A stretch of 64,000 bases of DNA from the NCBI GenBank assembly GCA_022495995.1, contig JAFEMH010002089.1, forward strand, positions 1 through 64,000, written 5' to 3'. A model generated the notes under the pieces. It saw nothing but the letters and a program-made list of their open reading frames with translations, searched no databases and was not told where the DNA came from. Of this stretch, positions 1,015 through 57,282 are shown in pieces. Positions within the stretch are counted from its first letter, which is position 1. Every line of letters begins with the position of its first letter. This DNA is from Adenophora triphylla var. japonica. Its lineage: Eukaryota > Streptophyta > Magnoliopsida > Asterales > Campanulaceae. Both the position numbers and the translations under genes were made by a program.

Positions 1015-2066
1015 TAGTGGGCCCCCGTCACTACGTCATAAGCCCTCGTATTCCACAGTATTTCGACCTCCCGGGGTGGGCGGCCCGGGCGAGGTCCTAT
1101 AGGGCAAGCGGGTCCCAGAGAAAAACGATCCTAAAAGTCGGCGGGTAATCGAGTCTTAACGAGCATTCGATGTAAATTAGGCATGGAATAATCATTAATC
1201 CTTGATGACTCGGTGTCAATCTTGGGAGTCGGTGTATAATTTGTGCCGGTCGAGCCGAAGTCAAGGCGCCGGTCAATATCTTGGTCAAAGTCTGCGGCGG
1301 AAAACCGGCAGAACTTCGACTGATTAGGGTCCCCGAAAGACATTGAGTCGGTATGCCGACAAAGGCTTGAAAGGAAAGGTCTATACACAGACAGGGCATG
1401 ACACAGACCAGACTAAAAACCAACCGGTTCTCGAACAAAGTGTGTCACGGACAAGTGCATGGTCGACACGAGGCTCCATGGGATGTTTGGGTAGTCCTGT
1501 GCTCATCCGAGAGGCGTAATAAGACCAAACGGACCGCGACAAGAATTTCCCCGGGTTAGGGACGTAGTGTGCAGTGTACGGTCACGTGCGCGTAGTGTGC
1601 AAGCAGTCTATATTCTTTTTCTGAGTAAAATAGAAATTTTTTTTATGTGTCTTAAAAATATGATGCATGATTTTTTTTTGAAAAATTTCTTTTTTTTTTT
1701 GAAAATCCTTTTTTTTTTGAATTTTTTTTTTTTGAAATTTAATGAACACATAAGCACGTAAGCACGAAAATTCCGATAGCTAGGGACATTATTCCGACAG
1801 TCAAAATTTTGACTTTCTCCGAGGCGGCCAAAACAACACGAAAATTGTGCAAAAATCAACACACACACAAAAATGATTTTCAAAGCCGGGACGGAAGCTT
1901 GACCCTCAAAAGCCTTTTTTTTTTGAAAACGGTGATACCGGTACGTGGGATTGTTAGACCACAATTTATCCCCGACTCGTGTTAGGAGGCGGTAACGGGA
2001 AGTTTAATGGTTTCCACCAATATACCAAATACCATTTTTTTTTTTAAAAAAAAAAAAAGCTCCTAT

Positions 2067-2084
2067 TCCCCAGCGGAGTCGCCA
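2067..2084 (-). other. Primer-binding site, tRNA-Arg type
   Basis: On the minus strand the sequence is TGGCGACTCCGCTGGGGA, one base away from the LTR end. This fits the tRNA-Arg-type primer site described for Tat/Ogre retrotransposons. It fixes the LTR boundary and the orientation of the element. Confidence 0.8.
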
Positions 2085-2085
2085 C

Positions 2086-3844
2086 TGTGATGATGTGTCG
2101 CCATTTCGCGGGAAAAAAATTCGATTTTTCGCGTTTCTTTGAAAAAAACCAAATAAAACCCGGGAAAAAGAACGGAGTCGCCACACCATTTTTGTTTTAA
2201 GGGCCAAAACTTTGAAAAATGCCCGAGATTAGGGATTTGGGTTCGGAGGTCATGTTACACGCCGGGAAGGACGTTAGTGTGCACCCGGAATGCCTCGTAA
2301 AACGAGTCTTCCAAGCTGAAAATCATTTGTGTGTGTGTGTGTGTATGTTTTGGCCAAAATAATTTGAAACTCAGAAAAGTAAAAATTGGGATATCTTTTT
2401 AAGACTTTAAACTGATCCCATGATTTTTTGGAAGATTTTTGGATTGAGATTTGGTACTCAAAAGACCTTTTGAAGTTGAGAGCCATTTCTGCCAGAATGA
2501 AAAAGGCAGTGGACCTTTGATTTTGAAATGGATTCAAAGGTCTTAAAACCTCATAATCTGGATAAACTCAGAGAATGAAAGTTGTTCCAGACACCTTAAA
2601 TAAGACTTGTACGAAGGAATTTTCCATTTTGGAGAAGATTTGAGGGGTCAAAACCTTCTGGAAATCTCAGATATGAGATCTAGATTTCCAGAAGCTGATG
2701 AACTAGCCTCTGAAAGAAAATTTGAAAAGAGGAGTTTTACTCACCCAAAAAATAAAGTAAAAATATTTCTGGAAATCTCTGGATGTTGGATACAAAAAGT
2801 GTTTTGTAGTCAACACCAAATTCCAAGTTCATCTGTGTCCAAAAATTAAGACAATGGACTGGGATCTTGGAAAATTGCTACTGGACAGCAACTTCTCAAG
2901 AAAGAAAATATGATTTTAAGGGGGGTTTTGCATCCATGCTTGTCCCCATTTCCCTAGGTTTTGGTTAGTGATCACTTGACATTTTAGTGGTGAATCAACT
3001 ATACCAAACCATCCTTGGGGTACATTAGGACTAAGCACTTCATTTGCTTGGGAAGGGGAATTTTATCCTTTGAAAATGAGATTTGATGCTTGAAAATGGT
3101 TTTTAGGGTTTTGAAAATGCTTTTGCAAGAAAACAAGAACACATTAAAGAAAATGTTGATCCTTGTAGAAGATCATCCATGGAGATGGACTTCCATGGTG
3201 ATCTTCTTGGATCTTAAGACAAAAAGAAGAATGAACTACATTTTGTAGTTTGAAGATGCATGCATGGATGAGAGATTTAGGGTAAGAAGAGGGAGGTTAT
3301 ACCTATCTTCCTTGAGTTTGTGTTTGAATGGGTTCAAGGCTTGAATGTGTTTAGGGTTTGAATTTGAGAGTGAGTGTGAGTTTGGAAAGATTCAAGAGAA
3401 AATGGTGACAATTCAAGTGAATTCTCACTGTTTTCTCTCTATATTTCGCCAGAGGTTCAGTGCAAATTGTGTTGTTGCTCCTTTATTTTTGTGACTGGAG
3501 GGCTCAATTTATAGCCCTCTGGAAATGACAGAGATGTCCGCGCGGATGGGATTGGTGGCGTGCACTGTTTATTAAATCTTTGCTTCGAGGCTTTGGACAA
3601 GAGGAATATTTCTTTTGAAAATTCAAATTAACAGCCAGTTTATGTTTCCAGCCATTTCTATTTTTGGTTTTCTTCCTTTGTTTTGCTTTTTAAGATTCTT
3701 TTTGAGGTTTAACCTTAAATAACAATGCCCATTTTACCCTCACTTTGTTAGAAAAGTTAGGAATGTTAGGAATTGTTAGAAATGTTATAACTTTCGTTAA
3801 TTTTCTAACGAAAATTCTAACAAGCTCAAATTGGAGCACTTACA
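2086..3844 (-). repeat. 5' LTR of Tat A
   Basis: Read on the plus strand this 1759-bp block starts TGTGATGATG and ends GCACTTACA, so it carries the TG...CA termini of an LTR. It has the same internal order as the LTRs of the second Tat element: a GAGTCGCCAC block, a GTTCGGAGGTC block, a GT microsatellite, then a TATA box near an AGCCCTCT stretch. Sequence identity to those LTRs is low outside these blocks. The partner LTR is not in the window, so divergence cannot be estimated. Confidence 0.75.
3506..3514 (-). promoter_or_regulatory. TATA box of Tat A LTR
   Basis: Minus-strand CTATAAATT inside the LTR, just before an AGCCCTC-type block that also follows the TATA box of the other Tat element. 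A single TCCGCGCGGA palindrome lies about 25 bp upstream (3537-3546). Confidence 0.55.
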
Positions 3845-6324: not shown

Positions 6325-6666
6325 TGTTGGTGTAATGCCCTAGACTTTAGTTATGTTTAACTTAAAAAATCGTTATGTACCATCTTTATCATTTAAGTTT
6401 ATTATTTGATTATTATATATTTTGCATATTTATTGCAATAATCTCCGTCCCTAATTATTAAGAGAATAATTAGTATAATTGTCAATGGATAATCATATGA
6501 TGATTATATACATAGAGATGCACATTGAAATTATGGGTACTTGTTAGTGAACAAGTGACTGGACTTGACCCGTATGAGATTTATGTCATGGTCAAATGTC
6601 ATATTAAATCTCATATGGTCACTTCATCTAGTCCCTAGACCTGAGATTATCATGACCTTACATATG
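6325..6666 (+). repeat. 3' LTR of old copia, left part
   Basis: Starts TGTTGGTGTAATGCCC directly after a purine tract. It is cut at 6666 by insertion of Tat B; bases 6662-6666 (ATATG) are the target site copy. Confidence 0.8.
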
Positions 6667-7670
6667 TGAAATTACCCGGGATCCGGCTCGCGCGCGGATG
6701 GTGCCCCCGTGCATCTCGCGTTCCGTTCGCTGTTCGGGAATGTTCGCCCGGATCCGAGAGGCAGCACAATCGCGCCCCGGCATCTGGCTTATTCCGTCTT
6801 AGCGTTTTGCGAGGTTGGAGGTGTCTCGCTGTGTTTTGCTTTGTAGAGTCGCCACGCCGTTTTTATTAAGCCCAAAACATTGAAAAAGGGCATCAGTTTA
6901 AAGATAAATTTTAAACTGTTTTTGTGTGATGAGATTTTGAGTTCGGAGGTCAGATGACTCCCCGGGAAGAGAATATTAGAATATTAGAGCTCACCCGAGT
7001 AGCCTCAGTAAAAACGAGCCCTTTCTGGATACCCCTAATATCCTTTAAAAAGTTGTGTGTGTGTGTGTGTGCTTTTAAAAATGCATCTTTGTATCGGATG
7101 TCTACATTGTATTGAAATGTATTGAAATAGAATAGGAAGGAAGCCTTACCAATGTTGGTTCGTGTCCGTCTTCTCCGCAGGGAATAGTGTTTGAGGTCGG
7201 AGTAGCTGTTCAGGATTGCTTCGGGGATGCCGGTTGTCCGCGGACGGAGTTTCGGCGTGAGTGGAGGTTGTAGCCGGCTGCGTTTGGGCGAAGGTTCGGC
7301 GTGCGTGGGGATCGTCGGGACCACTCGGGCAGAGGTTCGGCGTGCGTTGTGGTGGCGAGAGTCACTCGGGCGGAGTTTCGGCGTGGTTTGGGATCGTCGG
7401 TTTGACTCGGAAAGAGCGGGACACCGGAAAGACCGAGCGAGGCCTCGGAGTACCACGAGGGCCTCAGAGTACCTCGAGAGTGCCTCGGGGCAGCGCGGGA
7501 GCGTCTCGGGAGCGCTCGGAGAGGCTTCGGAGCACCTCTAGGGGGCTCGGAAGGCCTCGGAAGGATCCGAAGGGGCCGGGAATGCCTCGAAAGGGCTTAG
7601 AAGGGGAGCCAGAAGGCTTAGGGAGGAAGAGAGAAGAGGGAGGTGTGAAAAAATGAGGAGGGGGAGCCCT

Positions 7671-7680
7671 CTATTTATAG
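7671..7680 (-). promoter_or_regulatory. TATA box, Tat B 3' LTR
   Basis: CTATAAATAG on the minus strand, 20 to 280 bp downstream (in element sense) of the palindrome cluster at 7701-7952. The identical box in the other LTR is at 22677-22686. Confidence 0.65.
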
Positions 7681-7700
7681 TCTCGAATTTGGTGCAAAGA

Positions 7701-7952
7701 GGTCCGTACGGACCTCCTTGGGTTATCCAGATTTTGGTTTTCCTCGATTTGAGGGAATATGCAATGATGGTGAATATTACGGAAATGATGATGTTCCACT
7801 TGCAAAGAGGTCCGTACGGACCATCTTGCATGCAAAGAGGTCCGTACGGACCAAGTCTGCATGGAAACCATCATTTCTCCCGGGATTTGAGGGAATATTG
7901 TGGACTTTAAGGGGATTCAGTAATTATGGAAACAAAGAGGTCCGTACGGACC
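7701..7952. promoter_or_regulatory. Palindrome cluster GGTCCGTACGGACC x4 (3' LTR)
   Basis: Perfect 14-bp palindromes at 7701-7714, 7809-7822, 7839-7852 and 7939-7952. Each is preceded by CAAAGA. They occupy the part of U3 just upstream of the TATA box and look like binding sites for a dimeric protein. No function is proven. Confidence 0.8.
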
Positions 7953-8424
7953 TATATTGCTTTCGGTTTCTGAAAAATTCCCGAAAGGTCCTTTGTCCTT
8001 TTATCCCGAGGAAGGCTCCTCCCTTGGTTTGGTTGGGGGTTTAAGAGGGTTTTGAGAGGGTTTTGAGTGAGAGGGGTCCCTGAGACTGCGTGGATGAGTC
8101 TGCGGTGTTTCCCGTGTGTTTGAAAGGGAGTGATCCGAGTTGGGGTACTTACAGAAGCCCCTCGGCAGCGTCACTTATGAAGGAAGTGGGGTCGCCAGAT
8201 AAGATAAGGGTCCTAATGCGGATCGCGTCTTTGGGAGAGGAAGTGGCCAGTGAGGGTCGAAGTGAGGACGTGGTGGCGTCCTTTTGGGTGACCGTTTAGG
8301 TCGATAATTTGGACCACTGTGATAGGATTCCTACGTATCCCTGGCGGGAATCAAGCACAGTCGTAGTTCGGGTGTGGGGTGAGTGTTTTGTGAATGCGGG
8401 CGTGGTGGTGCCCTGGAGTGTTGT

Positions 8425-9640
8425 GTGACCGCCGAGGTCGGTGGTGATAAGGACGTGGAGCGTCTGGGTGACCGTATAGGTCGGTGATAAGGACGTGGTG
8501 GCGTCTGGGTGGCCGTATAGGTCGGTGATAAGGACGTGGTGGCGTCTGGTGGCCGCATAGGTCGGGGATAAGAGCGTGGTGGCGTCAGGTGGCCGCATCG
8601 TCGGGGATAAGGACGTGGTGGCGTCAGGGGTAGCCGTATAGGTCGGTGATAAGGACGTGGTGGCGTCAGGGTGGCCGTATAGGTCGGTGATAGAAGGGCG
8701 TGGTGGCGTCAGGGGTAGCCGTATAGGTCGGTGATAGGCGTGGTGGCGTCAGGGTGGCCGTATAGGTCGGTGATAAGGAGCGTGGTGGCGTCTGGGTGGC
8801 CGTATAGGTCGGTGATAAGGACGTGGTGGCGTCACGGGGTGACCCGTATAGGTCGGTGATAAGGACGTGGTGGCGTCAGGGTGGCCGTATAGGTCGGTGA
8901 TAAGGAGCGTGGTGGCGTCTGCAGGTGGCCGTATAGGTCGGTGATAAGGAGCGTGGTGGCGTCGGGGTGACCGCATAGGTCGGTGATAAGGCGTGGTGGC
9001 GTCAGGTGGCCGTATAGGTCGGTGATAGAACGTGGTGGCGTCACGGGGTGGCCGTATAGGTCGGTGATAGAGGCGTGGTGGCGTCGGGGTGGCCGTATAG
9101 GTCGGTGATAAGAACGTGGTGGCGTCAGGGAGTGACCGTATAGGTCGGTGATAAGGACGTGGTGGCGTCGGGGTGACCCGTATAGGTCGGTGATAAGAGA
9201 CGTGGTGGCGTCTGGTGGCCGTATAGGTCGGTGATAAGGACGTGGTGGCGTCAGGGGTGGCCGCATGGAGTCGGTGATAAGGACGTGGTGGCGTCAGGGG
9301 TGGCCGTATAGGTCGGTGATAAGGGCGTGGTGGCGTCGGGGTGGCCGTATAGGTCGGTGATAAGGACGTGGTGGCGTCCGGGGTGGCCGTATAGGTCGGT
9401 GATAAGGACGTGGTGGCGTCAGGGGTGGCCCGTATAGGTCGGTGATAAGGAACGTGGTGGCGTCAGGGGGTGGCCAAGTATAGGTCGGTGATAAGGAACG
9501 TGGTGGCGTCGGGGTGGACCGTATAGGTCGGTGATAAGGACGTGGTGGCGTCGGGGTGGCCGTATAGGTCGGTGATAGAGCGTGGTGGCGTCGGGGTGGA
9601 CCGCATAGGTCGGTGTGAGGAGCGTGGTGGCGTCACTGGG
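8425..9640. repeat. Tandem array 1, about 41-bp unit, about 29 copies
   Basis: Units share the core GTATAGGTCGGTGATAAGG followed by CGTGGTGGCGTC. Unit length drifts by 1-5 bases, nearly always at two places (after GTC and before CGTGG). It sits 270 bp inside the 3' LTR of Tat B. Open frames through it are by-products of the repetition. Confidence 0.93.
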
Positions 9641-10264
9641 ATGGAAATTTTACGATTTTCCTAATCGGGTGGTTTAAGGCCTTAGGGCGAAGATAGTTGT
9701 GAGGACTCGAATCGTCTTACGATCGTCTTCTAGCCGCAGTGTGGAGCGTGGGCGCCTTGTGATTCGAGGCGTAGATGCCATTTGTGTTTTTGCATGTTGA
9801 TGTAGAAAGGTCGGACTTACGATGACTGCTTAGGTGCTTGAGGCTGGGTTAAGTAGAGCGAGATGATGGCCGATGATTGCTTCATCATTTGGCGTTTTGG
9901 GAGCGCCGTGCCTTGGGACTTGTACTCGGAGGTGTTGGCTCCTTCGCGTGCTTGTTTTGCCGTTGAGTGGGCAAGGATGATGGTCGGTCTTTGAGGATAT
10001 GCGATCTTGCATGACTTCCCTTTGACTTGTTGAGGGGAGGAGCTCGGGCTTACTTTGATGGCCGGTGCTTGCGTTGCCGTTGAGGTGGCGAAGATTCGGG
10101 CTTACATCGGCTGAGGTGCTTGAATGCAGGGATGCATGACCTTCAGTAGGGAGCCACTTTTACCATTGGGAAGAATGACTTGGACCTTCGGTGGTTGAGT
10201 TTTCGTTGAGCGTTTGGAAGGCATCTTGCGCCTTGATATTCGTCTTTGAAAAAGGTGTTGGCTC
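9641..10264. other. Spacer between the two arrays
   Basis: Contains degraded GCCGTTGAGTGGGC-type pieces of array 2 and no recognisable gene. Confidence 0.5.
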
Positions 10265-11240
10265 CTTCTTGAATTGCCGTTGAGCCGGGCGGTGGTTGGA
10301 TTGCCGTTGGAGTGGCGAGGACCGGTCTTACGTTGATGGCCGGTGGTTGAATTTACCCGTTGAAGTGACCACGAGGACCTGTCTTACGGCGACGGCCGGT
10401 GATTGAATTGCCGTTGAAGTGGCGAGACCGGTGCTACGTTGATGGCCGTGGTTGAATTGCCGTTGAAGTGGCGAGGACAGTCTTATGCGCGGCCGGGGGA
10501 TTGGTGCCGTTTGAAGTGGCGAGGTCCGGTCTTACGTTTGACGGCCGGTGGTTGATTCTGCGTTGAAGTAGGCGAGATTCGGGCTTCATGACCGCCAGGG
10601 GATTGAATTGCCGTTTGAAGTGGCGAGAGTCCGGTCTTACGTTTGGCCAAGGGGATTGAATTGCCGTTTGAAGTGGCGAGAGTCCGGTCTTACGTTTGAC
10701 GGCCGGTGGTTGAGTTGCCGTTGAAGTGGCGAGACCGGTCTTGCTTGACGGCCGTGCTTGAATTGCCGTTGAAGTGGCGAGGCCGGTCTTACGTTGATGG
10801 CCGTGGTTGAATTGCGTTGAAGTGGCGAGACCGGTCTTACGACGGCCGAGATTGAATTGCCGTTGAAGTGGCGAGACCGGTCTTACGTTGATGGCGAGGA
10901 TTGAGTTGCCGTTGAAGTGGCGAGGAGACCGGTCTTACGTTGATGGCCGGTGGTTGATTTGCCGTTGAAGTGGGCGGAAAGGTCCGGTCTTACGGCCCGG
11001 CACGGCCGATGCTTGAATTACCGGGTGAAGTGGCGAGACCGGTCTTACGTTGATGGCCGGTGCTTGAATTGCCCGTTGAAGTGGCGGGGCCGTGCTACGG
11101 CCCGGCGGCAGGGGGATTGAGATTTGCCGTTGAAGTGGCGAGACCGGTCTTACATTGACGGCCGGTGGTTGAATTGCCGTTGGAGTGGGCGAGGACCGGT
11201 CTTACATTGACGGCCGGTGGTTGAATTGCCGTTGGACCGG
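10265..11240. repeat. Tandem array 2, about 51-bp unit, 18-20 copies
   Basis: Units share TTGCCGTTGAAGTGGCGAG, then ACCGGTCTTACGTTGATGG. It is unrelated in sequence to array 1 and separated from it by about 600 bp (9640-10265), where degenerate pieces of the same unit already appear from about 9950. Confidence 0.9.
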
Positions 11241-11449
11241 TTTAGCCGAGGTGTTGCCAGTTCTTTGGCCTATTTTGACTTTGCTCTGGAGGTATGAGTT
11301 TATTGCTATTTTTTTGATTTAGCAATGTCATCATTTCTCCATTGTCTTTTACTGTGAGCCTTTTCGCTTTTGTCACGAGGTGTGGTTCTACGAGATCTTC
11401 CGGTGCTTCCCGTGGGATAGAGATCAGAGTACATTGCATTGCGTACCTG

Positions 11450-12619
11450 CTATGCTAGGGTTTGGGCTCGTACGGCGAGGAAGAGGAGGACCACGGGGGA
11501 AGCTCACCATCGCTTACGGGGATGTGCGGGAAGCGTCTGGAGAGAAGATAGCCGTGAGGGTTTCGTCTTGTTCCATGGGCTCGGTATGAGGGTGATGAGT
11601 TTGAGGAGCTCAGAGGTGACGGCGCGGCGGAAGATCTTTGCGGGGCTTGACTTGCGACGCCATGTATGCAGGGAAGCGAGTCTTGGCAGCATAGCCCGGG
11701 TGTGCTTCCCGTAGCTCAGAGGATCCTCCGTTTGGGATGTTTGACTCCAGGGATATGGATGTGCTGGATTTTGAGAGGTACCTTGGCGGTGTGGGTGCCG
11801 AGGAGTTTATTTTGTTTGGTGAGGAGTACGAGACCTTTGTTAGGAGGAAGTTGAGGACGCCGCGGGTAGTGGCGAGGGAGAGAGGCTGGTCCATGAGCTC
11901 CCCAGAGGTTCCGATGCGGGGCCGGATTTCACTTATGTCCGCGGGGACGGATCGCGGAGGAGGGTGTATGCATGCCGTTCACAGCGAGCTCTGCTTTGCG
12001 TCACCAGTGGATCTGATAGATCGGTGAGTGTCTTGACTCTTTTCCGTTTTGGCATCTTTTACGCATTTTTCTCTTTTTGTTGTTGAGTATACTACATTGA
12101 TGAGCGTTTCTTTGGTACATTTTGCTTGTGCGGAGTCACTGGGAGAGCCTATGATGCGCCTGACTCGCCGTTATGTGGCGATGAGATCCTTTGCTAAGAA
12201 GATGGCGTCGAAGATGTCTTGCCGGTCTTCGCGTCGTATGCCAGCGTATGAGCCGATGCCTTCGAGGCATTCAGTGGATGTTCCTCCACCGGGAGCCGAG
12301 CCAGGGCCGCAGCAGGAGGGACCTTCGAGAGGGCGGCATAGCATGGATGCGGGAGCGTCTTACGGAGGCTGCAGTGGCCTTCGAGGGCGGCCACTTTTAT
12401 CGATTCGTACCTCGCATGCCGCTCGCTCGAGTGAGGATTCTCGAGCCTTCCTTCTTTGATCCTTTCGCCGGATTTGATCCTTCTGAGTACTTTTCGTGGG
12501 AGCCTCAGGCGGGTGCTCGGTATTCTGACGACGAGGATGTGACGGGCGAGTTCGCTGGGATGCCCGACTTTTCTTTGGAGGACCTCGGCGAGGATGATGA
12601 TGCTGAGGATTCTGATTAG
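11450..12619 (+). pseudogene. Second opposite-strand ORF of Tat B, acidic C-terminus
   Basis: A plus-strand coding-like stretch upstream of the PMD-like gene. The first part (11737-12023) carries FERYLGGVGAEEFILFGEEY and stops being open at a CG|GTGAGTG donor-like site (12024), which suggests an intron. The last part (12191-12619) ends in an acidic tail (DLGEDDDAEDSD) and a TAG stop at 12617. An AATAAA polyadenylation-like signal follows at 12693-12698. I do not recognise the protein. It could be the 3' half of a second captured gene, or the displaced end of the neighbouring PMD-like gene. Coding status is inferred from the stop, acidic tail and poly(A) signal only. Confidence 0.4.
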
Positions 12620-12692
12620 TATTCATTTGCTTTCCCTCTTTTCATATCCCTCTTTTTTTTTTTTTGTTTAGCAACAGACATTTTGTACCTGT

Positions 12693-12698
12693 AATAAA
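12693..12698 (+). terminator. Poly(A) signal AATAAA
   Basis: AATAAA 74 bases after the stop at 12619 and before the palindrome pair at 12955. It separates the two opposite-strand genes. Confidence 0.4.
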
Positions 12699-12954
12699 AC
12701 ACTAGCAATTGCATGGCAACAGTATTTTATTTTAAGATGTAATGTCATATTTTGTGATTCCCGGGAATTGTCCTAGAAATTGTTGCTATTATTATTTTTT
12801 ATTTTTGTGCATGCCACGTGAGCTGAGGGTGCGTTTGTGGGTAGCGTATGCTTGCCGGGAATGGTTTTGGCCAGTGTTTGGGTATTTGGAGCAAGGTTTC
12901 TTGAGGACGGTGGTTTTATCTTGTTTTTGGGGAAATGGGTTACGATTGCAAAGA

Positions 12955-12999
12955 GGTCCGTACGGACAGACCTACATTGCAAAGAGGTCCGTACGGACC
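12955..12999. promoter_or_regulatory. Two LTR-type palindromes before the opposite-strand gene
   Basis: GGTCCGTACGGACA at 12955-12968 (last base changed) and a perfect GGTCCGTACGGACC at 12986-12999, 31 bp apart. Both have the same AAAGA lead-in as the LTR copies, and TTGCTTTCGG follows as in the fourth LTR copy. They lie about 120 bp upstream of a plus-strand ATG at 13117. Confidence 0.8.
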
Positions 13000-13116
13000 A
13001 ACTTTGCTTTCGGAAGGACTTAAATGTTTTCCGGTGTCTGGACTTTCTCCCATTCCCCATTTGCGGCCATTTTCGAGCTTTCTTCCCCATTTTCTCTAGG
13101 AACCTCCATTTTTGCC

Positions 13117-14660
13117 ATGGATTCTTCGTATGTCCCTAGAATTTTGCCGAGGCTTTCGCAGAGAGGCAAGCACACTTCCTAGGCGGTTGAAAACGTGGAT
13201 GCGGCGCCGTATGAGGCATCGAGAGACGGGCTTTCGAGGTAAGGTTTCGTCTTTGCTCGGTTTGGTCTTTTAAGGAGTTGGTTCTGATTGGGATTTGTTG
13301 CGGGCTGCCGCGAAGTTACAGGATGTTAGGAGGCACGTGCACAAGCTTCTCCTACAATGAAATGGTGCCCACTTTTGAAGATTTTCGGGCTTTGATTGGA
13401 GGACCGGAGGTGGAGGCCATCTCGCTTCCTTTGGTTAGTGGTCTTTGCCGTGAGCGTGAAGCTTGCGGACTTTCTTCGTACTTCGTTGGAAGAAGTGCGA
13501 GGGCATGATCCTTGATTCGGGTCATATTGACATTTGCTGCCTGTAGGAGCGGTTCATGGTTGATGATGAGTGACGTCTCTTAGGATGTATTTGCCTTGTG
13601 TATGATAGCGACGCTCTTCTGGTCGGCTCCCTTGGCATTTGTGATGGCGCTTTGCTAGATGTGGTAGGGCACCGCAGAGCCGGAGAGGATATTGTCCCGT
13701 TGGTCTTTGGGGAGACTCTTCATGGTATCGACCGTCCGGCGCCCGGGGATCGTTTTATGAGAGGAAGCCCCGCTTTGCTCACCTTGTGGCTGCGAGAGAG
13801 ACTTCGAGCCATGCCGAGGCTCCGACGTCGTTTAGCCCGTGGTCATTTGCTCAGCGACCTCTGGTGTTGGATATGGATCGATCACGCTGGGAGAGATGGA
13901 TGGCACGGCTTGGTACGCATCGAGATCCGGTGGGTTCCTTGTGGAGGATTGAGACCGGGAGGATCTTGCAGAAGGGTCCTACGTCGTCGGTGGTTCCGAG
14001 GTTTGTCTTGGTCACTCCTTCTATATTCCGTCGCTTGTTTCCGGCGGTTTGGGATGAAGCGAGCCTTTGTTGGGTGGGATGACCTTGCTGCTGCGGAGGT
14101 AGTTCCTCTTTGTATGGCGGCTCAGTGCCTTCTTGTATTGTACGAGGGTATGGAAGTATTCCGCTTTCCCTCTGTGGTACTCCTTAGACGTCGGGAGAGT
14201 GTCGTGTTGACGACTCGGTATACGGCTTTAGTATGAGCGGCATGTTGGGCGATCCCAGTGGTCTTGGAGAGCGGCGTGCAGCGGATTACAGGACCCGGTT
14301 GCCGTAGCGGCTATTGCCTTAGGAGTGCGAAGCACAGTCGACCACTTTGGATGTGACGGGAGACACTTTGTTTGACTACGAGACTAGAAGTTGGCCGGCG
14401 ACGAGGAGAGGTCCTCTTTTACGGACTCGCGGGGAGGAGATCCGAGCCGAAGCACGGGCGAATGAAGCCACGAGAGCTACTTGGATTATTTGACTCTGAG
14501 AGGACCCCGGATCTCGGGCGAGAGACGCGAAGTTGGTTCACGTGGAGCGAAAGAAGACTCGCCGGGGACGAGGAAGAAAGGAAAGAATGGCGAGGGGACA
14601 AGCGCGAGATGGCGCGGAATGACCTCCTAGGTATCCATTCATTGCATTGCAAACACATTA
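13117..14660 (+). pseudogene. Opposite-strand PMD/DUF7745-like gene of Tat B
   Basis: Plus-strand gene inside the minus-strand element. A start is likely at 13117 (MDSSYVPRILPRLSQ). A GAG|GTAAGG splice-donor-like site follows at 13239 with a TTTAAG|GAG acceptor-like site near 13275. Next come WDLLRAAAK, then SFSYNEMVPTFEDFRALIGG (13353-13412), the hallmark N-terminal motif of plant mobile-like domains. VPLVFGETLHGIDR, FMRGSPALLTLWLRERL and, in another frame, LDMDRSRWERWMARL, PRFVLVTPSIFRRLFP and GMKRAFVGWDDL continue the same domain. A basic, possibly coiled-coil tail ends near 14660. Small indels break the frame several times. Its function in the element is unknown. Opposite-strand genes are known in Tat relatives such as Grande. 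Confidence 0.65.
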
Positions 14661-15399
14661 TTAGTTAAATGTATTAAGGCTGTCTTTTAGCATGTTGTGA
14701 ACTTGAGAGTAGACCGTGCTTGAACTCATCAAGAAATGTTGTAACCGTTAGTGATTTGTGATTTACTTTTAAAGCTTTGTCGAGACGCAAGATCTCTTGT
14801 TTGCCTTGGCTTTTGTTGTGCACTTTGTCGGCGTCCATCTTTGGACTTTTCTGTTGCATCCGCGGGTGGCGATCGAGCCATGACGGCAATCCCCTTTTCT
14901 TTGAGGCTTTGTATTTGGCCGAGAGGTTGAATGCTCCCTTGACAAGTCGTTCTGACGGTCTTTTTCGTAGCTTCCTTGCCGCTTGTTGGCGTCGGGCTCT
15001 TGACCTCAATTTCGCGGCTTACGTTTGAGCTTCTTTTTTTTTTTTTTTTTGTTGTGTGAGCCCTTGCTCGAGCTCTCTTTTTTTTTTTTTGAAGCGCGTG
15101 AGGGCGAAGGCAAGCCCTGGCAGAAGTGGACATGAGTCGGTCGTTTGATCTTTGAGTGACCCTCGGATGTCTTTGGATGTTGCCGCCGTCGTTTGACTTG
15201 GTCAAGGTGGCTTTAGGCGTGTTCTTGAAAAGTGCGTAGCTTGATGGAGGTCTTGATTGACATTCAAACTTTTGACCCTTTTTGTGTATTTTTAGACCGG
15301 ACCAATTAAGGTTGCCTACGTTCCCCGGACTAGAGGGCTCGGAGTGCACGTAGTTCGACACTACATGGAGTGCCAAGAGATGCACAGTTGTTCTTCTTC
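14661..15399. other. Linker between integrase and opposite-strand gene
   Basis: T-rich runs (15035-15090) and lysine/arginine-rich open stretches on the minus strand that look compositional. I see no recognisable domain. Confidence 0.4.
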
Positions 15400-16600
15400 G
15401 AGGCGAAGTATCTGCGAAGTTTGCTTCCGTTATTTGGATTCATGAAGGGTTGCCGTCTAGGTCTGTTAGCTTCATGGCACCTCAGGAGAAGATCTTTTGA
15501 ACCACGAAAGGGCCGATCCATGTGGGTTCCCATTTTCCCAGTGGGTTGGTTCGAGTGGGAGGCTTTTCTTTGAGTACAAGGTCACCTTCCCGATGTCTCG
15601 GGATTTGACTTTCTTGTCGAAAGCTCTAGCCATCCTGCTTTGATAGGCTCGGACGTGTTCCATGGCCTTTAGTCGTCGCTCGTCTAGCGAGCCAATTCGT
15701 CATGTCGGCTTCGGAGCCATTCGACTTCGTTGATGTCATTTTCAGCGGCGCTCGGAGTGAGGGAATTTCTAGCTCGATGGGAAGGACTGCTTCCATCCCG
15801 TATGTCGGGGCAAATGGGGTTTCTCCCGTGGGCATTCGGCCCGATGTGCGGTAGCCCCAAAGTGCAAGGTGCGGCTTCTCGGGCCAATCTCGTCCTCGGG
15901 TGGTCATTTTTCGGATGATCCGTTCGAGGGTTTTGTTTCTTTGCTTCCACGGCGCCGTTTGTTTGTGGCCGGTAGGGAGAAGATTTGTGGCGTGTGATCT
16001 TGAATTCAGCCGGCGATGCATCAAATTCTCCTTCGAAGTGTGAGCCGTTGTCTGATATGACCTCATTTGGGATGCCGTATCGGCATATGATGTTTTCCTT
16101 GAGGAAATGTGCGACCTTCTTGGAGGTGAGTACCTTGTAGGACTTGGCCTCGACCCATTTGGTGAAGTAGTCGATGGCTACTAAGATGAACTCGTGACCG
16201 TTCTTGCTGGCGGAGCGATTTTCCCTATGACGTCAATTCCCAGTGGCGAAAGGGCGAGGTGTAGTCATGCGGTAGAGATCGTGGGGCGGCGAGATGATTG
16301 AGGTTGGAGAACCGTTGGCACTTGTCGCGGCTTCGGACAAAGTGGATGCAATCTTGCCTCCATGGAGATCCGATAGTAGCCCATCCCGAGAATGATTTGC
16401 ATCGGGGCTCTGGCGTTCATGTGGGGACCGCAAGCCCCATTGTGGACTTCGTTCATGAACTTGTCTTGCTTCTTCTGGGCGACGCGGCGTAGGAGTGGCC
16501 CGTAGTAGCGTTTTTTGTATAACATGTCCCCGAGGATGACGAAGTGAGAGGCGAGGCGTTTTAGGGCCATGATGCTCTTGGTTTTGACCCCTCACGTGTG
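15400..16600 (-). pseudogene. Integrase of Tat B (frameshifted)
   Basis: The zinc-binding part is seen around 16570-16330 (LYKKRYYGPLLRRV, then EVHNGACGPHMNARAPMQII and MGYYRISMEA). The catalytic core follows in other frames: YFTKWVEAK near 16170, IPNEVISDNGSHFEGEF near 16060, then PQTNGAVEA and PFAPTYGMEAVLPIELEIPS near 15800. The C-terminal GPFVVQKIFSGGAMKLTDLDG segment is near 15500. This is the standard Tat order (H2C2, DDE core, C-terminal domain). It would insert the cDNA copy into the genome. Several frame changes show it is dead as read. Confidence 0.85.
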
Positions 16601-17811
16601 TTGACCTTCCTTGTTCATGAAGGCGGTTTCCCGTTCTTGAGGTATTGGAAGATCGGCTTGTCTTTGGAAATGGCGTCGGACTTGCGTCTCTTTGGCTCTT
16701 CGGCAATCTTGCAAATCGTTGTGATTAAAACCTTCTCGGCGGCTTGGGCCCGGTTTTCTCTCGTTTGACAACATGCTTAAATGTTTGCTTGATGCATTTA
16801 TTTAATTAATGTGTTTGCCTTTTGTATAGATGAGTTTAAGCTTGTTTTGATTAGTTAATGTCATCATTTGTTAAAGATGCAATGAGATGGTTTTAGGAAG
16901 GTCGGACCTTTTATTGAAAGCGTGAAGGCATGCATTGTTGATCAAAGATTCACAATCGTCGGGCGTAAAGCCGTCAAAGACACAAAAGATGTGAATACAA
17001 TGCGACAACAAGACTCGAAGCTAGACTATAGGCGACGAGGGATTGGACCGAGCTTCATTACTCCCGGATAGGCGTAGCTCTAGAGGGAGTGGTCTTTGGT
17101 TCGGGTGGCCAATCTTCCCTTGGCGTGAGTCCGGAAAAGTAGCTTGCATGCGGTTCAATTTCAAACCGGATCGCGGAGGTTTTTGGCTGCTCCACGATGA
17201 TGTCCCTCCATTAGTGTTGCCACCGGTCCTTGGGGGTTTTTGATGATAGAAGTCGGCGAGGGCTACTTCTAGGAGGGCGAAGCATTCGGCCCGGTCGGAG
17301 TGGATTCTTCTTGCGATGTTGATCACTTTCATAGAATCCGCCTCTTTATGCGGGATCTTTGCTTGGACGACATTTACAATGTCCGATTCGAGCGGGCATG
17401 CTATATCTCCTTCCCCGATTAAGCCTTGGAGGAGGTTGCGCCATTGTTCGTCCGGAGTCGGACACCGGAATGTTGAATTGAACTAAGCTGTGATGGCCGT
17501 CCCCGTAAGATCCGAGTGTCGGCTAGAGGGTTGTCTTGTACGGGGATCGGTGATAAGCCGGTTGCAAGAGGGTTTTCGGCGAAGTAAGGGTCTACTCCTC
17601 GATCAATCTCCATTAGGGCATCCGTCTCTTGATCCTCTCTCAAGCATTCTTCACGATCGCATATATCGAGTTGTCATCCTGGCCCATGAGTTCTTCAATT
17701 TCCGGCTCGTCGCGGCTTAGAGCGTGGATGTAAGGATCCACCTCGTAGCGGGATAGGGTAGGAGAATCATGCGGGGAAGAGTATTCGATCATGTCGGGAC
17801 CTTCTTACAGG
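16600..17811 (-). other. Gap where RT/RNase H should be
   Basis: Between protease and integrase there are only about 1.2 kb. I find no YxDD-like RT catalytic motif and no RNase H block on the minus strand. Open pieces such as 17643-17419 and 17332-17021 match nothing I recognise. A full RT-RNase H region would need roughly 2 kb. Confidence 0.5.
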
Positions 17812-18508
17812 TCATAGCTTGGCGGCCAAGCACTTGCCATTACTGCGCTTCCGCGGATCACTTCGATTGCTCCGTTGGCATTGATGAATTTCACGCATTG
17901 GTGAAGAGTAGATGATCTTTGCTTTCATCGATGTATCGAGCCGTCCCAACAAAGCAGAGAAGGTTGGTTTGACTTCCACGACTTGGAACTCTACCGACTC
18001 CAGTTGTACGTCGAATTGGATCCTCAAGTTGATGATTCCTACGATTGGTCGTGCAGTAGAGTCGTAGGCTCGGATTACCCGAGGTGAAGGCCTTATCGAA
18101 GAAGCGGTCGATGTGGAGTCGTTTCGGTGTGCTTAAAGCGATGATGTTGACTGCGGAGCCGTTATCAATCAAGACGTTCGGGAGGAAGAACCTCTCTATC
18201 TTTATGAGGATGAGGAGAGCTTCGTTGTGCCGATTCTCACATATTGGCAAGTCATCGTCTGTGAAGGCTAAACCGCTTCCCGTGCTACCGTTGGACTCAG
18301 TCTCGTGCAGGGAACGTTCGATCCAACCATTTGTATGCCTTGGGCTGGGCAAAGATCGTAGGGAGACGGTGGCCCTTGGGCGTTCTTGTCGGAATTCCCG
18401 GTCACGAGACCTTTTGACTCTTGTTTCACGTTCCCGATCATAGCGAGACAAAGCATGCGACGGTCTCGGAAATTGCGGGGAGTACGCTCTCGCTTGGGAT
18501 TTCGTCAA
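17812..18508 (-). pseudogene. Aspartic protease region of Tat B
   Basis: The minus-strand frame contains FTDDDLPICENRHNEALLI followed by VLIDNGSAVNIIALSTPKRL. The D-N-G-S block is the active-site form usual in Tat proteases. A shifted frame continues with VEFQVVEVKPTFSALLGR, the second conserved half where LLGR is expected. The protease would cut the gag-pol polyprotein. The frame change between the two halves near 18030 means it is not functional as read. Confidence 0.8.
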
Positions 18509-18599
18509 TGGCTGTGGAGTTTACCACTGTCGTTACGGGAATGGATTTCCAATGGTATTGGGACCACGGGGGCGTTCCAATTTTCCCTCCTCAATGAGC

Positions 18600-20473
18600 C
18601 CCCGAATCACCTGCTTGAGTACGAAGCAATTGTCGGTGGTGTGGCGGGGTAGTTATGGAAGGCGCGGTGCTTGCTCATATCCATGTTGGGTTTGAGGGTC
18701 TTCGGTTGGAAATTCTCGAGTGGTTTGAGAAGATTTCGCTTCACCAAAGCTTCAAATACTTGACCCAAGGGCATTTCCGAGGTTATCAAAATCTTTGGGC
18801 TGGGAAGCGAGGGGTTGTTATTCTTTGGGGCCGCTGATCGCGGTTTACTTGAGCTCCGTTACGAATGTAGTGCTTGTTCATTGCTTCCTTTCCTTTGGTT
18901 GGGCGGGAGTTGAAGTTGCCGGGTTTGTTCGATAGCGGTAAGACGATGCGGGGGTTCTTTGTTGCCTTTTGAAGACTCGTAGTCTTTTCAAACTTTGTCC
19001 GGCGTTGACCATGGCACGGAGATCCGGATAGAAATGGTGGGTGATCAAAGTCCTCAAAGAAGGTTTGAGGCGAGGAATGGAAGATGTCCATCTGCTCTTC
19101 TTTGGAAAGTGGATCCATTATCTCGCTTAGCTTCCGGTTCCATCTTTTGTAGAATTCGCCCCTTTGGTTCGTCATCCTTTTTGTTCGGTGGCTTGCGGGT
19201 CATGGCGGTTTGTTTCCCATTCAAGATTGGCACGGTACTTCTCCGGGAAGATTTCACTAATCCGATCCCACGTGGAGCGGTTTTACGCCTTCACATTGAG
19301 GAACCACCTTAGTGCTTTGTGGATTTGAGGGAATGCGAAAATGATACGCCATCTGTTGAGGGTTGCCCCTTTGGCTCTCATACCCGGGACGTAGGTGTCG
19401 ATGTGGGTTTTGGGCATTCTGTTCGTCAAACTTTTCCATTTCCGGCATCCTGAACTTTGGAGGGAGAGGGACCACTTTGTTCGGATCGGTAGGCAGGAGG
19501 GAGTCCTTTCGAGAACTAGCTAGATTGCCTTGCATGTCTTTCATTTGTTCAATCAGCCAGCCATGTGGGGATCGGTGTTTGAGGTGGGTTACCATTTTCG
19601 GGGACGGACACCGAAGATGGAGGTGGATTGGGCGATGGGATCGCCATTCGGGAATCTTGGGGAGGTAGTTGAGTGTATACCAACCCATACCCCAGGGTGT
19701 TGAAGTTGAGGGCGTGATTGCCGGAGTCCGCTAAGGGTTGTGTTTGGGAACTGGGGAAACGATTCGTTAGCCCCAATTGGCAGACTTGCAGGTGGCAAAC
19801 TTGAGATGTCGGGATATCCGCTCGGGATGCCTGTCCCTGGTAAGAATGGGGACTTTTGATTGTGATTGCGAGGCTCGTATAGAGGCAAAGGATTGAATCC
19901 TGGGGGATACCGAGATGCATTGGGATGCAGCGGAGCGAGCACGTATGTGTCTTTGTTGGTGCTGAGCTTGATGTGCGAGCCGGGAAGCGGACGATCTGAG
20001 GCGGGCATGTCGGAGCGCTGACCGACGCCTGAGGGGAGCTTTGAGCGAGAGCGCTGCGTAGCTGGGATCTCGTAGCTTGGCGGAGGCGGGACCTGCTGAT
20101 AGCTTTGAGAAACCGGGGGAGCCGGTATATCTTCGTCCTCTATGAGAACAAAGGTTCCGTCGGGTTGGGGAACTGCAACTGTTCCTCGAAGGCGCAAGGT
20201 GTCGACGATCCAGGCTTGCTGTTCTTCTTGGCGCTTCTTGATGGCTTCGAAGGCTCGCAGCACCTCCTCCATTGTCTGGAGATTCCTTAGTGGCGGGGTT
20301 CCGTTTCCCTCACTGTTATCTGGATCCGTCGTCAGAGGGAGTATTGGACGGTGCGGGCCGTTGAAGCTGGAAGGGCTATCGGACCTTGTGACCTCGATGC
20401 GAAAAGGCGGCTTCCGGGGGATTCTCAACCACTCTCGGTTATTTGGAGGGGGTGATGGGCAAGGTTTAGACAC
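18600..20473 (-). pseudogene. gag of Tat B (frameshifted)
   Basis: Starts at 20473 with MSKPCPSPPPNNREWLRI, a proline-rich N-terminus typical of plant Tat gag. It has an IEDEDIPAPP acidic stretch near residue 110. After a frameshift near 19650 come the KFRMPEMEKFD and NPHRHLR segments of the retrotransposon gag core. Further frames give YKRWNRKLSEIMDPLSKEEQ (about 19150) and MDMSKHRAFHNYPATPPTIA (about 18660), the usual end of the Tat gag where a CCHC-like segment would follow. The product would package element RNA. At least three frame changes are needed to follow it, so it is not intact as read. Confidence 0.8.
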
Positions 20474-21667
20474 AGGAATGGCCTAACGGGATAGAAGGGG
20501 GAAAGCTCACGTGGCATGCGGTTTCCGTTTCTTTTATTTTCGATTTTTGATTTTTTTGTTGTTTTAATTTACTTAAAAAACAGTATTTTCTCGAGAATCT
20601 AGGTAGGTTGGAAAAGATTGCTCTTCTTTTTCGCAACTATGCTAGATCCTGGGTCGATGGAGACCATACGTGCGGCTATAAGCCCCTCGTTTTTTTGTAT
20701 TTCGACATCCCGGGGTGGACGGCCCGGGCGAGGGTCCTATAGTGCAAGCGGTTTCCACCGGCCTAAAAGAAAAATCGAACCTAAGGACCGAGCTGTCATG
20801 TTCGTTTTGATGCATTAGCCATGCTGAATAGTGAACCGAGCCGGCCACCGAGTCAAGATCAGGTCAAGAGTTCGGCATGACCTCTCTTTACCTTGCTTGC
20901 GCAAGGGATCTGTGACGTTAGGCGTTAGGTGGGTCATATCGTCATGGGCTGGCGTATCAAAGGCGTGATGACATGGTGTCATGCGGCATGGATGTATATC
21001 GGGACGGAACATCGTGCAGGTGTAGCCGGAAATCAAGATCGGGTCAAGATTTTAGCATGACCTTTCATCGCTTTGCTTGCGCAAGGGATCTTGAGTTCCG
21101 AGCCTTGACTCGAAAATGGCCGGCATGGTATATGTATCCAGCCGTATGACACCTGACCGGTAAAAACCAACCGAGTCTGGACGAGTGTGACTCAAGACTC
21201 AAACGTGCGGGGTTGACGCTTGGCTAGGATGGGATGTTTGGAATGATCCCGTGCGCGCCCAAGAGGCCTAGGAAGACCAAACGGACTGCAACCGAGACCA
21301 CTCCGGGTTAAGGGTTGTAATGTGCAACAGTATCCGAGGCAAGGCGGCATAGTGTGCGGTGCTTAACCGAGGCAAAGAAAGCTGAGTAGAGCTGCTGTAA
21401 CCAGGCAAGAGCCAAGGCGGTGCGCGTAGTGTGCGGTTTCTAAAATTCTTTTACGAGTAAAATAGAAGTTTTTGAAGAATTTTAAATGTATGCACGAGAT
21501 GTATATTGATGCATTTTTTTGTATTTTTATTTTTTTTTTTTTTTGTAAAATAAAAACGAAGCACGTGCACACACACACAACGATTAAAGGAAGGGGTAAA
21601 ATGAAAGTTTGACCCTCATCATCGTTTTAAAAATCTTTTGTTTTGTTTAAAAGTTTTTAAAACAAAA
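20474..21667 (-). other. Untranslated leader of Tat B
   Basis: Between PBS and gag start. It holds a block around 20690-20790 shared with the Tat A leader and otherwise no convincing gene. Confidence 0.5.
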
Positions 21668-21685
21668 TGTCCCAACGAGTCGCCA
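21668..21685 (-). other. Primer-binding site of Tat B
   Basis: Minus strand reads TGGCGACTCGTTGGGACA, two bases after the LTR. The first nine bases equal those of the Tat A site, so the same tRNA-Arg-type primer is likely. The rest is altered, with an apparent missing base. Confidence 0.7.
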
Positions 21686-22676
21686 ACCGAAATTACCAGG
21701 ATCTCGGCTCGCGGCGATGGTGCCCCGTGCATCTCGCGTTCCGTTCATTTGTTCGGGAATGTTCGCCGGATCCGAGAGGCGGCACAATCGCGCCCCGGCA
21801 TCGGCTTATTCCGTCTTAGCGTTTTGCGAGGTTGGAGGTGTCTCGCCGTGTTTTGCTTTGTAGAGTCGCCACGCCGTTTTATTAAGCCCAAAACATTGAA
21901 AAAGGGCATCGGTTTAAAGATAAATTTTAAAGCTGTTTTTGTGTGATGAGATTTTGAGTTCGGAGGTCGATGACTCCCGGGAAGAGAATATTAGAATATT
22001 AGAGCTCACTCCGAGTAGCCTCGTAAAACGAGTCTTTCGGATACCCCTAATATCCTTTAAAAAGTTGTGTGTGTGTGTGTGTGCTTTTAAAAATGCATCT
22101 TTGTATCGGATGTCTACATTGTATTGAAATGTATTGAAATAGAATAGGAAGGAAGCCTTACCAATGTTGGTTCGTGTCCTGTCTTACCGCAGGGAATAGT
22201 GTTTGAGGTCGGAGTAGCGTTCCTGGATTGCTTCAGGATGCCGGTTGTCCGCGGACGCAGTTTCGGCGTGAGTGGAGGTTGTAGGCTGCGTTTGGGCGAG
22301 AGGTTCGGCGTGCGTGGGGATCGTCGGGATCACTCGGGCAGGTTCGGCGTGCGTTGTGGTGGCGGGAGTCACTCGGGCAGAGTTTCGGCGTGGTTTGGGA
22401 TCGTCGGTTTGACTCGGAAAGAGCGGGACACCGGGAAAGACCGTGCAAGGCCTCGGAGTACCACGAGGGGCCTCGTAGTACCTCGAGAGTGCCTCGGGCG
22501 GCGCGGGAGCGTCTCGGGAGCGCTCGGAGAGGCTTCGGAGCACCTCTAGGGGGCTCGGAAGGCCTCGGAAGGATCCGAAGGGCCGGGAATGCCTCGAAAG
22601 GGCTTAGAAGGGGAGCCGAAGGCTTAGGGAGGAAGAGAGAAGAGGGAGGTGTGAAAAAATGAGGAGGGGGAGCCCT

Positions 22677-22686
22677 CTATTTATAG
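22677..22686 (-). promoter_or_regulatory. TATA box, Tat B 5' LTR
   Basis: CTATAAATAG on the minus strand. This copy would drive the genomic transcript of the element. Confidence 0.65.
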
Positions 22687-22707
22687 TCTCGAGATTTGGT
22701 GCAAAGA

Positions 22708-22958
22708 GGTCCGTACGGACCTCCTTGGTTATCCAGGATTTTGGTTTTCCTCGATTTGAGGGAATATGCAATGATGGTGAATATTCTGGAAATGATGATG
22801 TTCCCTTGCAAAGAGGTCCGTACGGACCATCTTGCATGCAAAGAGGTCCGTACGGACCAAGTCTGCATGGAAACCATCATTTCTCCCGGGATTTGAGGGA
22901 ATATTGTGGACTTTAAGGGGATTCAGTAATTATGGAAACAAAGAGGTCCGTACGGACC
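22708..22958. promoter_or_regulatory. Palindrome cluster GGTCCGTACGGACC x4 (5' LTR)
   Basis: Copies at 22708-22721, 22815-22828, 22845-22858 and 22945-22958, at the same spacings as in the other LTR (107-108, 30 and 100 bp). None has changed, although flanking sequence differs between the LTRs. Confidence 0.8.
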
Positions 22959-23168
22959 TATATTGCTTTTCCAGTTTCCTGAAAATTCCCGAAAGGTCCT
23001 TTTGTCCCTTTTTATCCCAGGAAGGCTCCTCCCTTGGTTTGGTTGGGGGTTTAAGAGGGTTTTGAGAGGGTTTTGAGTGAGAGGGGTCCCTGAGACTGCG
23101 TGGATGAGTCTGCGGTGTTTCCCGTGTGTTTGAAAGGGAGTGATCCAGATTGGGGTACTTACAATATG

Positions 23169-56390: not shown

Positions 56391-56395
56391 ATATT

Positions 56396-57272
56396 TGTTG
56401 GGATTTTTTGGATAGGCTTCTTAAGGAAATAACAAAGAAGGATGAGAAAGATAACAGAAATTATAACGGAAATTGAAAAGCAAACCACAAATAGTCGAGT
56501 CTTGTGTTTAACACAATTTCCGTAAGAAGTATTTGTCCCGCACAGGTGCTTACGATTGATGACAAACTTCTCGTGAGATGAAACGACTTCTAATTGTTAA
56601 TAGGAGCACACCAAATTAACAATTCTAACGAACAATAGAAAGTTTGGAACTTTGGACTTGAAGGAATTTGATACAACAAGATGATATGATTTGGCTATGT
56701 TAATCTATCTCAAATGTGGGTAGAGAGGCTCAAATGACTGAATGTATGAATTGAAATTCAGAGGGGAAGTATATAAGGAGAGTTAAGAGGTTTGTGTCTT
56801 TTCCCTTGAAAAGACACAACTTTTCTTTTGAATTGGCACCTGTTCAGGAACTGCTCGGCCGAGTCAAGGGACTCGCACGGCCGTGTCAAGGAACTCGCAC
56901 GGCCGTGTCAATCTCACTGCTCGGCCGAGCAAGGCATATGCCTCGGCCGAGCAAGCTTGTTCAGAGACTTGGCCAATTTGCTATGCTCTGCTCGGCCGAG
57001 TCAAGGACTCTGCTCGGCCGAGCACATCAAACCACATCAAAAAACCCTTTAAATAACTCTCGTTAAGTTACAAATCTTTGTCATTAATTTCTCATTCACC
57101 CGGAAATGGTTTTGAGACAATAAATGAGATTCATAATCTACACTAAATGTAGAATACATTTTGTAACTTACTTCGTTAACAAATAACGAATTCTGTTGGA
57201 AGTTAACGAACTTTCGTTAGAAAGTTAGATCAACGACAAGTCAAACTTAATTTTCGTTACCCATTTTCAACA
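56396..57272 (-). repeat. 3' LTR of copia C
   Basis: 877 bp, plus-strand start TGTTGGGATT and end TTTTCAACA. It carries seven CGGCCG-centred palindromes at 56854-57022 and a minus-strand TATA-like ATATAC near 56775. Confidence 0.94.
56854..57022. promoter_or_regulatory. Phased palindrome array, copia C 3' LTR
   Basis: CTCGGCCGAG at 56854, 56920, 56942, 56991 and 57013, and CACGGCCGTG at 56876 and 56898. The first five are exactly 22 bp apart, and the last two are also 22 bp apart. The array lies in U3, upstream of the TATA-like box in element sense. Confidence 0.85.
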
Positions 57273-57282
57273 ATCCCCCACA

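What the first reader, a model, noticed from the sequence alone, without database searches (positions are those of the whole stretch)
6667..23163. Shared palindrome links Tat B LTR promoters to its own opposite-strand gene
The 14-bp palindrome GGTCCGTACGGACC occurs four times in each LTR just upstream of the TATA box. It occurs twice more (12955, 12986) directly before the plus-strand PMD-like gene inside the same element. The extended context (CAAAGA before, TTGCTTTCGG after) is shared, and a 30-31 bp pair spacing recurs at both places. I found no copies elsewhere in the window by eye. The sites are unchanged between LTRs that differ elsewhere. A simple reading is that one dimeric factor controls both the genomic promoter and the opposite-strand gene. 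That factor could be the element-encoded protein, giving a self-regulating or anti-silencing circuit like the VANC proteins of VANDAL transposons, which act through element-specific motifs. The sites are seen in the sequence; the circuit is inference.
Basis: partly seen in the sequence, partly recalled or inferred. Interest (0 to 1): 0.78.

Follow-up and report, generated by a model that had tools for sequence, protein, structure and literature searches.

The report
Shared palindromic box in retrotransposon promoters
A plant retrotransposon carries the same 14-letter palindrome beside the promoter in its long terminal repeats and ahead of a broken opposite-strand reading frame; a related element carries a variant at the same distance from its TATA box, so this looks like a real promoter switch, more likely read by a host protein than by the element's own.

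Summary
The sites are real: GGTCCGTACGGACC occurs four times in each LTR of a 16.5-kb minus-strand element (6667-23163, TSD ATATG), once at 12986, and with one mismatch at 12955; all ten window matches (<=3 mismatches) lie in it. Two results change the reading. First, a second Tat-like LTR in the window (about 2086-3844) has TCCGCGCGGA with TATAAA starting 23 nt past it; the nearest TCCGTACGGA of the finding's element has offsets 23 and 24, though the spacers are not alike. The palindrome thus looks like one form of a TATA-proximal box, TCCG-N2-CGGA, multiplied here. Second, a Copia element in the window has an array of another palindrome upstream of its TATA and no separate opposite-strand reading frame, so arrays need no element-encoded partner. 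Each of the ten palindromes carries the published SBP/SPL site CCGTAC(A/G) on both strands; the Tat A box does not. The opposite-strand gene was not confirmed as PMD. A shared cis-element is supported; a VANC-like circuit is possible but unsupported. The genome-wide test could not be run.

The parts
6667..8153 (-). 3' LTR of the finding's element (Tat B)
   Evidence: TG..CA ends and TSD ATATG at 6662-6666
21688..23163 (-). 5' LTR of Tat B (its inner end base differs from the 3' LTR); TSD ATATG follows at 23164-23168
7701..7714 (.). palindrome, 3' LTR site 1; TATAAA begins 23 nt past the TCCGTACGGA core
7809..7822 (.). palindrome, 3' LTR site 2
7839..7852 (.). palindrome, 3' LTR site 3
7939..7952 (.). 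palindrome, 3' LTR site 4
22708..22721 (.). palindrome, 5' LTR site 1; TATAAA begins 24 nt past the core
22815..22828 (.). palindrome, 5' LTR site 2
22845..22858 (.). palindrome, 5' LTR site 3
22945..22958 (.). palindrome, 5' LTR site 4
7673..7679 (-). TATA box (TATAAAT) of the 3' LTR
22679..22685 (-). TATA box (TATAAAT) of the 5' LTR
12955..12968 (.). internal palindrome 1 (one mismatch, inner 12 bp intact)
12986..12999 (.). internal palindrome 2 (exact)
13020..13025 (+). TTAAAT, weak TATA-like box 22 nt past the internal palindrome core
   Evidence: best 5 of 8 bases of TATAAATA; P about 0.14 by local simulation, so weak
   Evidence: stop-free pieces; no Pfam family
3537..3546 (.). variant box TCCGCGCGGA in a second Tat-like LTR (Tat A); TATAAA begins 23 nt past it
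3507..3513 (-). TATA box (TATAAAT) of the Tat A LTR
2086..3844 (-). Tat A 5' LTR, limits read by eye from TG..CA ends and the adjacent primer-site motif; the rest of the element runs off the window at position 1

Best explanation
The palindrome is a transcription-factor site of inverted-repeat form, TCCG-N2-CGGA, that belongs to the core promoter of Tat-like LTRs, with TATAAA starting 23-24 nt past it. In this element the form with centre TA was multiplied to four copies per LTR. A two-copy piece also lies ahead of the opposite-strand reading frame, so the genomic promoter and that promoter would answer the same factor. Shown: sites, arrangement, the same box-to-TATA distance in two Tat-like elements, homology of the internal pair to LTR sites 2+3. 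Inferred: that a protein binds them, that it is a host protein (an SBP/SPL factor is the best named candidate for this element only), that the internal pair drives a transcript, and that the box was copied from the LTR inward.
For: Ten sites, all in this element. TCCG-N2-CGGA occurs 11 times in 64 kb against 0.37 simulated (largest 2 in 100 runs); the one copy outside Tat B has the same offset to the TATA of the other Tat-like LTR. Box-spacer-TATA: 3 matches, 0 in 100 shuffles; in the whole IMG/VR scan only 5 records with 3 distinct sequences. The spacer is not alike (7 of 22, P 0.32), so box and TATA are kept while the rest drifted. The internal pair aligns to LTR sites 2+3. A palindrome array also stands upstream of the TATA in a Copia element without an opposite-strand frame of its own. 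CCGTAC(A/G), the published SBP cis-element, is on both strands of all 10 palindromes: 20 of 23 window hits, 5.25 expected in the window.
Against: The Tat A form TCCGCGCGGA lacks the GTAC core, so SBP factors cannot read the whole box class; for one SBP factor, SPL7, the reported motif is GTACTRC, not this one (PMC9516184, passages). The box class and the box-TATA pattern were written after seeing the sites. The internal AT-box is weak (P 0.14). Conservation of the sites between the LTRs is not significant. No expression, binding or methylation data. No other copy of either family could be examined.
Confidence: 0.5

Rival explanations
1. Element-encoded factor: the opposite-strand protein (or another element protein) binds the palindrome at both promoters and activates or unsilences the element, as VANC proteins do for VANDAL transposons.
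For: Family-specific centre (TA in Tat B, CG in Tat A) and tandem multiplication resemble VANC targets (PMC5735166, passages). Antisense ORFs of Retand elements usually encode TRP28, predicted to bind DNA (PMC11963269, parts 1-3 of 5).
Against: No domain or homologue found for the gene. Copia control without such a gene. The frame is broken in this copy. A fixed TATA distance is what an ordinary promoter box would also show.
Confidence: 0.17
2. Passive copy: the internal pair is a piece of LTR U3 sequence copied inward (for example by template switching) and has no promoter role.
For: 62-69 bp at 84-87% identity to LTR sites 2+3; one site is already imperfect; the AT-box is weak; the reading frame is broken.
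Against: The pair lies 117 nt before the ATG with an AT-box at nearly the LTR distance; in 12600-13140 only the stretch around the pair aligned to the LTRs.
Confidence: 0.18
3. The CG-containing palindrome arrays are mainly targets of silencing (CG methylation, RNA-directed methylation) or of recombination, and their promoter position is secondary.
For: Each core has two CG dinucleotides; the only indel between the Copia LTRs is a 20-bp change inside its palindrome array, so such arrays turn over.
Against: Does not explain the shared box-to-TATA distance.
Confidence: 0.08

Closest known systems
VANC proteins and VANDAL21/VANDAL6 motifs (Arabidopsis), PMC5735166 and PMC10398659, passages read
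   Same: Short family-specific motifs multiplied in non-coding parts of an element, including upstream regions.
   Different: The VANDAL21 motif YAGTATTAY is not palindromic and lies in dense arrays in one orientation, with a binding protein shown by ChIP and gel shift; here there are 4+2+4 palindromes in an LTR element and no known protein.
Antisense ORFs of Retand/Tat elements (Grande gene23, TRP28), PMC11963269 (parts 1-3 of 5 read) and PMC7264820 (passages)
   Same: Opposite-strand reading frame between pol and 3' LTR, tandem arrays there; Grande gene23 is transcribed from its own upstream promoter.
   Different: No TRP28 or other domain was found here; the text read does not mention a box shared with the LTR.
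SBP/SPL transcription-factor sites: TNCGTACAA, core GTAC (PMC10796333, PMC8874652, passages); CCGTAC(A/G) (PMC6508781, passages)
   Same: Tat B core TCCGTACGGA contains CCGTACG on both strands.
   Different: The AA of TNCGTACAA is absent; the Tat A box has no GTAC.
Host-factor site arrays in plant LTRs (ONSEN heat-shock elements, Tnt1/Tto1 boxes; recalled, no call)
   Same: Repeated factor sites in U3 upstream of the TATA.
   Different: Known cases are not, as far as I recall, reused before an opposite-strand gene.

Membership tests
Tat-like Ty3/gypsy LTR retrotransposon | LTRs with TG..CA ends and 5-bp TSD | tested here: met
   TSD ATATG (one inner end base of the 5' LTR differs)
Tat-like Ty3/gypsy LTR retrotransposon | RT phylogeny within Tat/Ogre/Retand | tested here: inconclusive
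   no RT or RNase H family in the pieces given, which did not cover every frame in full; only a weak integrase-core hit below its cut-off (PF00665, 7.8e-06)
Tat-like Ty3/gypsy LTR retrotransposon | arginine-tRNA-type primer-binding site (reported for Ogre, PMC9289625, passage) | tested here: inconclusive
   TGGCGACTC follows both the Tat A and Tat B 5' LTRs; its match to tRNA-Arg is recalled, not aligned
Tat-like Ty3/gypsy LTR retrotransposon | antisense ORF and tandem arrays between pol and 3' LTR | tested here: inconclusive
   arrays at 8443-9635 and 10286-11234; the reading frame has no domain hit
PMD-encoding retroelement | PF10536 hit in the opposite-strand gene | tested here: not met
   no family reported at E<=10; frameshifts and the program's filters limit the test
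TRP28 antisense ORF (Retand) | PF04195 hit in the opposite-strand gene | tested here: not met
   no family reported at E<=10; same limits
VANC-like anti-silencing system | element-encoded protein that binds the motif | not testable with these tools
   needs binding data
VANC-like anti-silencing system | motif enriched in family copies, rare elsewhere in the genome | not tested
   The genome search gave no answer in 13 tries; in the window, 10 of 10 matches are in the element
SBP/SPL-regulated promoter | CCGTAC(A/G) sites at the promoter | tested here: met
   20 of 23 window hits are in the 10 Tat B palindromes; not met by the Tat A box
SBP/SPL-regulated promoter | binding of an SBP protein to these sites | not testable with these tools
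   needs binding data

The most novel reading that the evidence does not exclude
Tat-like elements use a family-specific operator, TCCG-N2-CGGA, whose central two bases differ between families, read by a protein from the element's own opposite-strand gene, which controls both its own promoter and the LTR: a retrotransposon parallel to VANC/VANDAL that links antisense genes of the lineage to LTR activation.
Probability: 0.14. Interest if true: 0.78.

Novelty: new variant of a known kind. Interest (0 to 1): 0.45.

Why it matters
What the antisense genes of Tat/Retand elements do is called unknown in the two papers seen on them (PMC11963269, PMC7264820; parts and passages). A promoter box shared between LTR and antisense gene, with a fixed TATA distance and a family-specific centre, gives a concrete motif to search for in plant genomes and a short DNA probe for binding assays. 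If the factor is a host protein, it ties the activity of a giant retroelement to a host programme; if it is the element's own, it would be a new self-regulating retrotransposon.

Tried and rejected
Relatives: exact 20-mer CAAAGAGGTCCGTACGGACC in viral contigs and genome contigs, 0 hits each. Integrase, opposite-strand and gag pieces in viral contigs: 5, 0 and 6 stretches matched a pattern, none confirmed as a relative. Two protein searches with single-frame readings, scoring residues 205-345 and 55-130 only: 95 and 78 candidates, none at E<=0.1 and E<=1. The box-TATA pattern in viral-contig hit 5 records; three share one sequence. ORFs were listed for two of them (L004, L005) and look by eye like phage structural genes. 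No TGGCGACT motif follows any of the 5 matches in the DNA held, up to 3.5 kb but only about 0.3 kb for L003 and 1.8 kb for L002. Taken as chance. Solved structures: nothing for one piece, two chance-level hits (E 0.65, 0.71) for the other. Rfam: none.

Codon-pattern test for the coding strand (RNY): discarded, because the measure is the same on both strands. Site conservation between the LTRs: too weak to lean on. 'Decayed element' as an argument against the gene: set aside, because the LTR differences look partly like assembly error (inference). Prior print: 10 searches of open-licence PMC; judged from the listings (titles, starts of abstracts) and the passages read, none concerns a box shared between LTR and antisense promoter. 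Subscription papers and preprints were not searched.
Full report
OBSERVATION. GGTCCGTACGGACC was searched on both strands with up to 3 mismatches: 10 matches, mean 0.95 in shuffles, none of 100 shuffles with 10. Four exact sites lie in each LTR, one exact site at 12986, and one with a single mismatch at 12955. The element is in minus orientation, 6667-23163, with 5-bp TSD ATATG and LTRs about 95% identical. CAAAGA precedes 10 of 10 sites; TTGCTTTCGG follows only two (7939, 12986); the close pair is 30 apart in the LTRs and 31 inside. The internal pair aligns to LTR sites 2+3 at 84-87% over 62-69 bp, so it is homologous to them and not a chance match.

A SECOND TAT-LIKE LTR. The left part of the window matches the leader and LTR of the finding's element at the DNA level in collinear order (1058-1117, 1398-1573, 1586-1641, 2175-2219, 2292-2351). 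Its 5' LTR, about 2086-3844, has TG..CA ends by eye and is followed by TGGCGACTC, as is the 5' LTR of the finding's element. The exact palindrome is absent there. But in the 64 kb the looser form TCCG-N2-CGGA occurs 11 times: 10 in Tat B and once at 3537 as TCCGCGCGGA (0.37 expected per 64 kb by simulation, largest 2 in 100 runs). There TATAAA begins 23 nt past it; in Tat B the distance is 23 (3' LTR) and 24 (5' LTR). The combined pattern box + 20-22 nt + CTATAAAT matches 3 times in the window and in none of 100 shuffles. The 22-nt spacers are no more alike than chance (7 of 22, P 0.32). The pattern was written after the sites had been seen, so these figures are not a blind test, but the single outside hit falling at the same distance is hard to get by accident. 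I read it as a conserved TATA-proximal box of which Tat B carries one form, multiplied.

A COPIA CONTROL. A second LTR pair, 56395-57294 and 61820-62719, belongs to a Copia element (Retrotran_gag_2 and Pol_BBD above cut-off, RVT_2 just below it). Upstream of its TATA (placed by eye) stands an array of another GC-rich palindrome, CTCGGCCGAG, 11 exact copies over the two LTRs, with CACGGCCGTG three times. Between the LTRs its opposite strand holds only two stop-to-stop frames of 100 aa or more, both overlapping gag-pol frames. The only indel between its LTRs is a 20-bp change inside the array. Over the whole window, pairs of identical GC-rich 10-bp palindromes less than 300 bp apart number 23, tandem arrays included, against none in 60 simulations. 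Palindrome arrays at LTR promoters therefore occur here without an opposite-strand partner gene. One Copia element is a small control.

THE OPPOSITE-STRAND GENE. An ATG stands at 13117, 117 nt past the second internal palindrome. TTAAAT begins 22 nt past the palindrome core, a position like that of the LTR TATA but a weak match (5 of 8; P 0.14). The reading frame is broken into pieces in all three frames. Seven of its 24 stop-free pieces of 25 aa or more and three whole single-frame readings gave no Pfam family at E<=10, with the caveat that the filters drop most matches above about 0.1. Two homologue searches gave none.

MECHANISM. The best-supported account is an ordinary promoter element in an unusual arrangement: a box bound by a protein that recognises an inverted repeat, near the TATA of the LTR, multiplied in one family and also placed before the opposite-strand gene, so that both promoters answer one signal. 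For Tat B the best named host candidate is an SBP/SPL factor. CCGTAC(A/G), published as the SBP cis-element (PMC6508781, passages), lies on both strands of every palindrome, 20 of 23 window hits with 5.25 expected; core GTAC and TNCGTACAA are from PMC10796333 and PMC8874652 (passages). Against it, the Tat A box has no GTAC, the AA of the longer consensus is absent, and for SPL7 a different motif, GTACTRC, is reported (PMC9516184, passages). An element-encoded reader remains possible: the centre differs by family and the sites multiply in tandem, as reported for VANC targets (PMC5735166 and PMC10398659, passages), and Retand antisense ORFs usually encode a domain predicted to bind DNA (PMC11963269, parts 1-3 of 5). 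Nothing here shows it.

WHAT COULD NOT BE DONE. With one Tat B copy and one partial Tat A copy, the link between the internal pair and the gene rests on position alone.

VERDICT. Observation confirmed with small corrections; shared cis-element supported and strengthened by the second Tat-like LTR; self-regulating circuit unsupported but not excluded.

Noticed in passing
window 56395-57294 and 61820-62719: Copia element whose LTRs carry an array of CTCGGCCGAG/CACGGCCGTG palindromes upstream of the TATA; the two LTRs differ by one 20-bp stretch inside the array.
   Followed up: partly
window 6667-8153 against 21688-23163: LTR differences in Tat B include 25 indels of 1-3 bp and swaps such as CG against CAG/CTG, against 1 indel in the Copia LTR pair. 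They look like uncorrected long-read errors (inference), so age and 'decay' of this element may be overstated.
   Followed up: partly
window 16400-18600: No reverse transcriptase or RNase H family in the pieces scanned between the protease-like and integrase regions (not every frame in full); the element may be non-autonomous.
   Followed up: partly
window 10286-11234: 53-bp tandem array holding another palindrome, AGACCGGTCT, six exact copies; a 42-bp array of about 29 copies lies at 8443-9635.
   Followed up: no
window 1-3844: Second Tat-like element (Tat A), collinear with Tat B in leader and LTR, running off the left edge; LTR about 2086-3844.
   Followed up: partly
window 4613-5259: 323-bp unit duplicated in tandem at 97%, next to Copia-like coding remnants by eye.
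   Followed up: no
window 44533-45033: Minus-strand fragment that looks by eye like the zinc-finger part of a Ty3/gypsy integrase.
   Followed up: no
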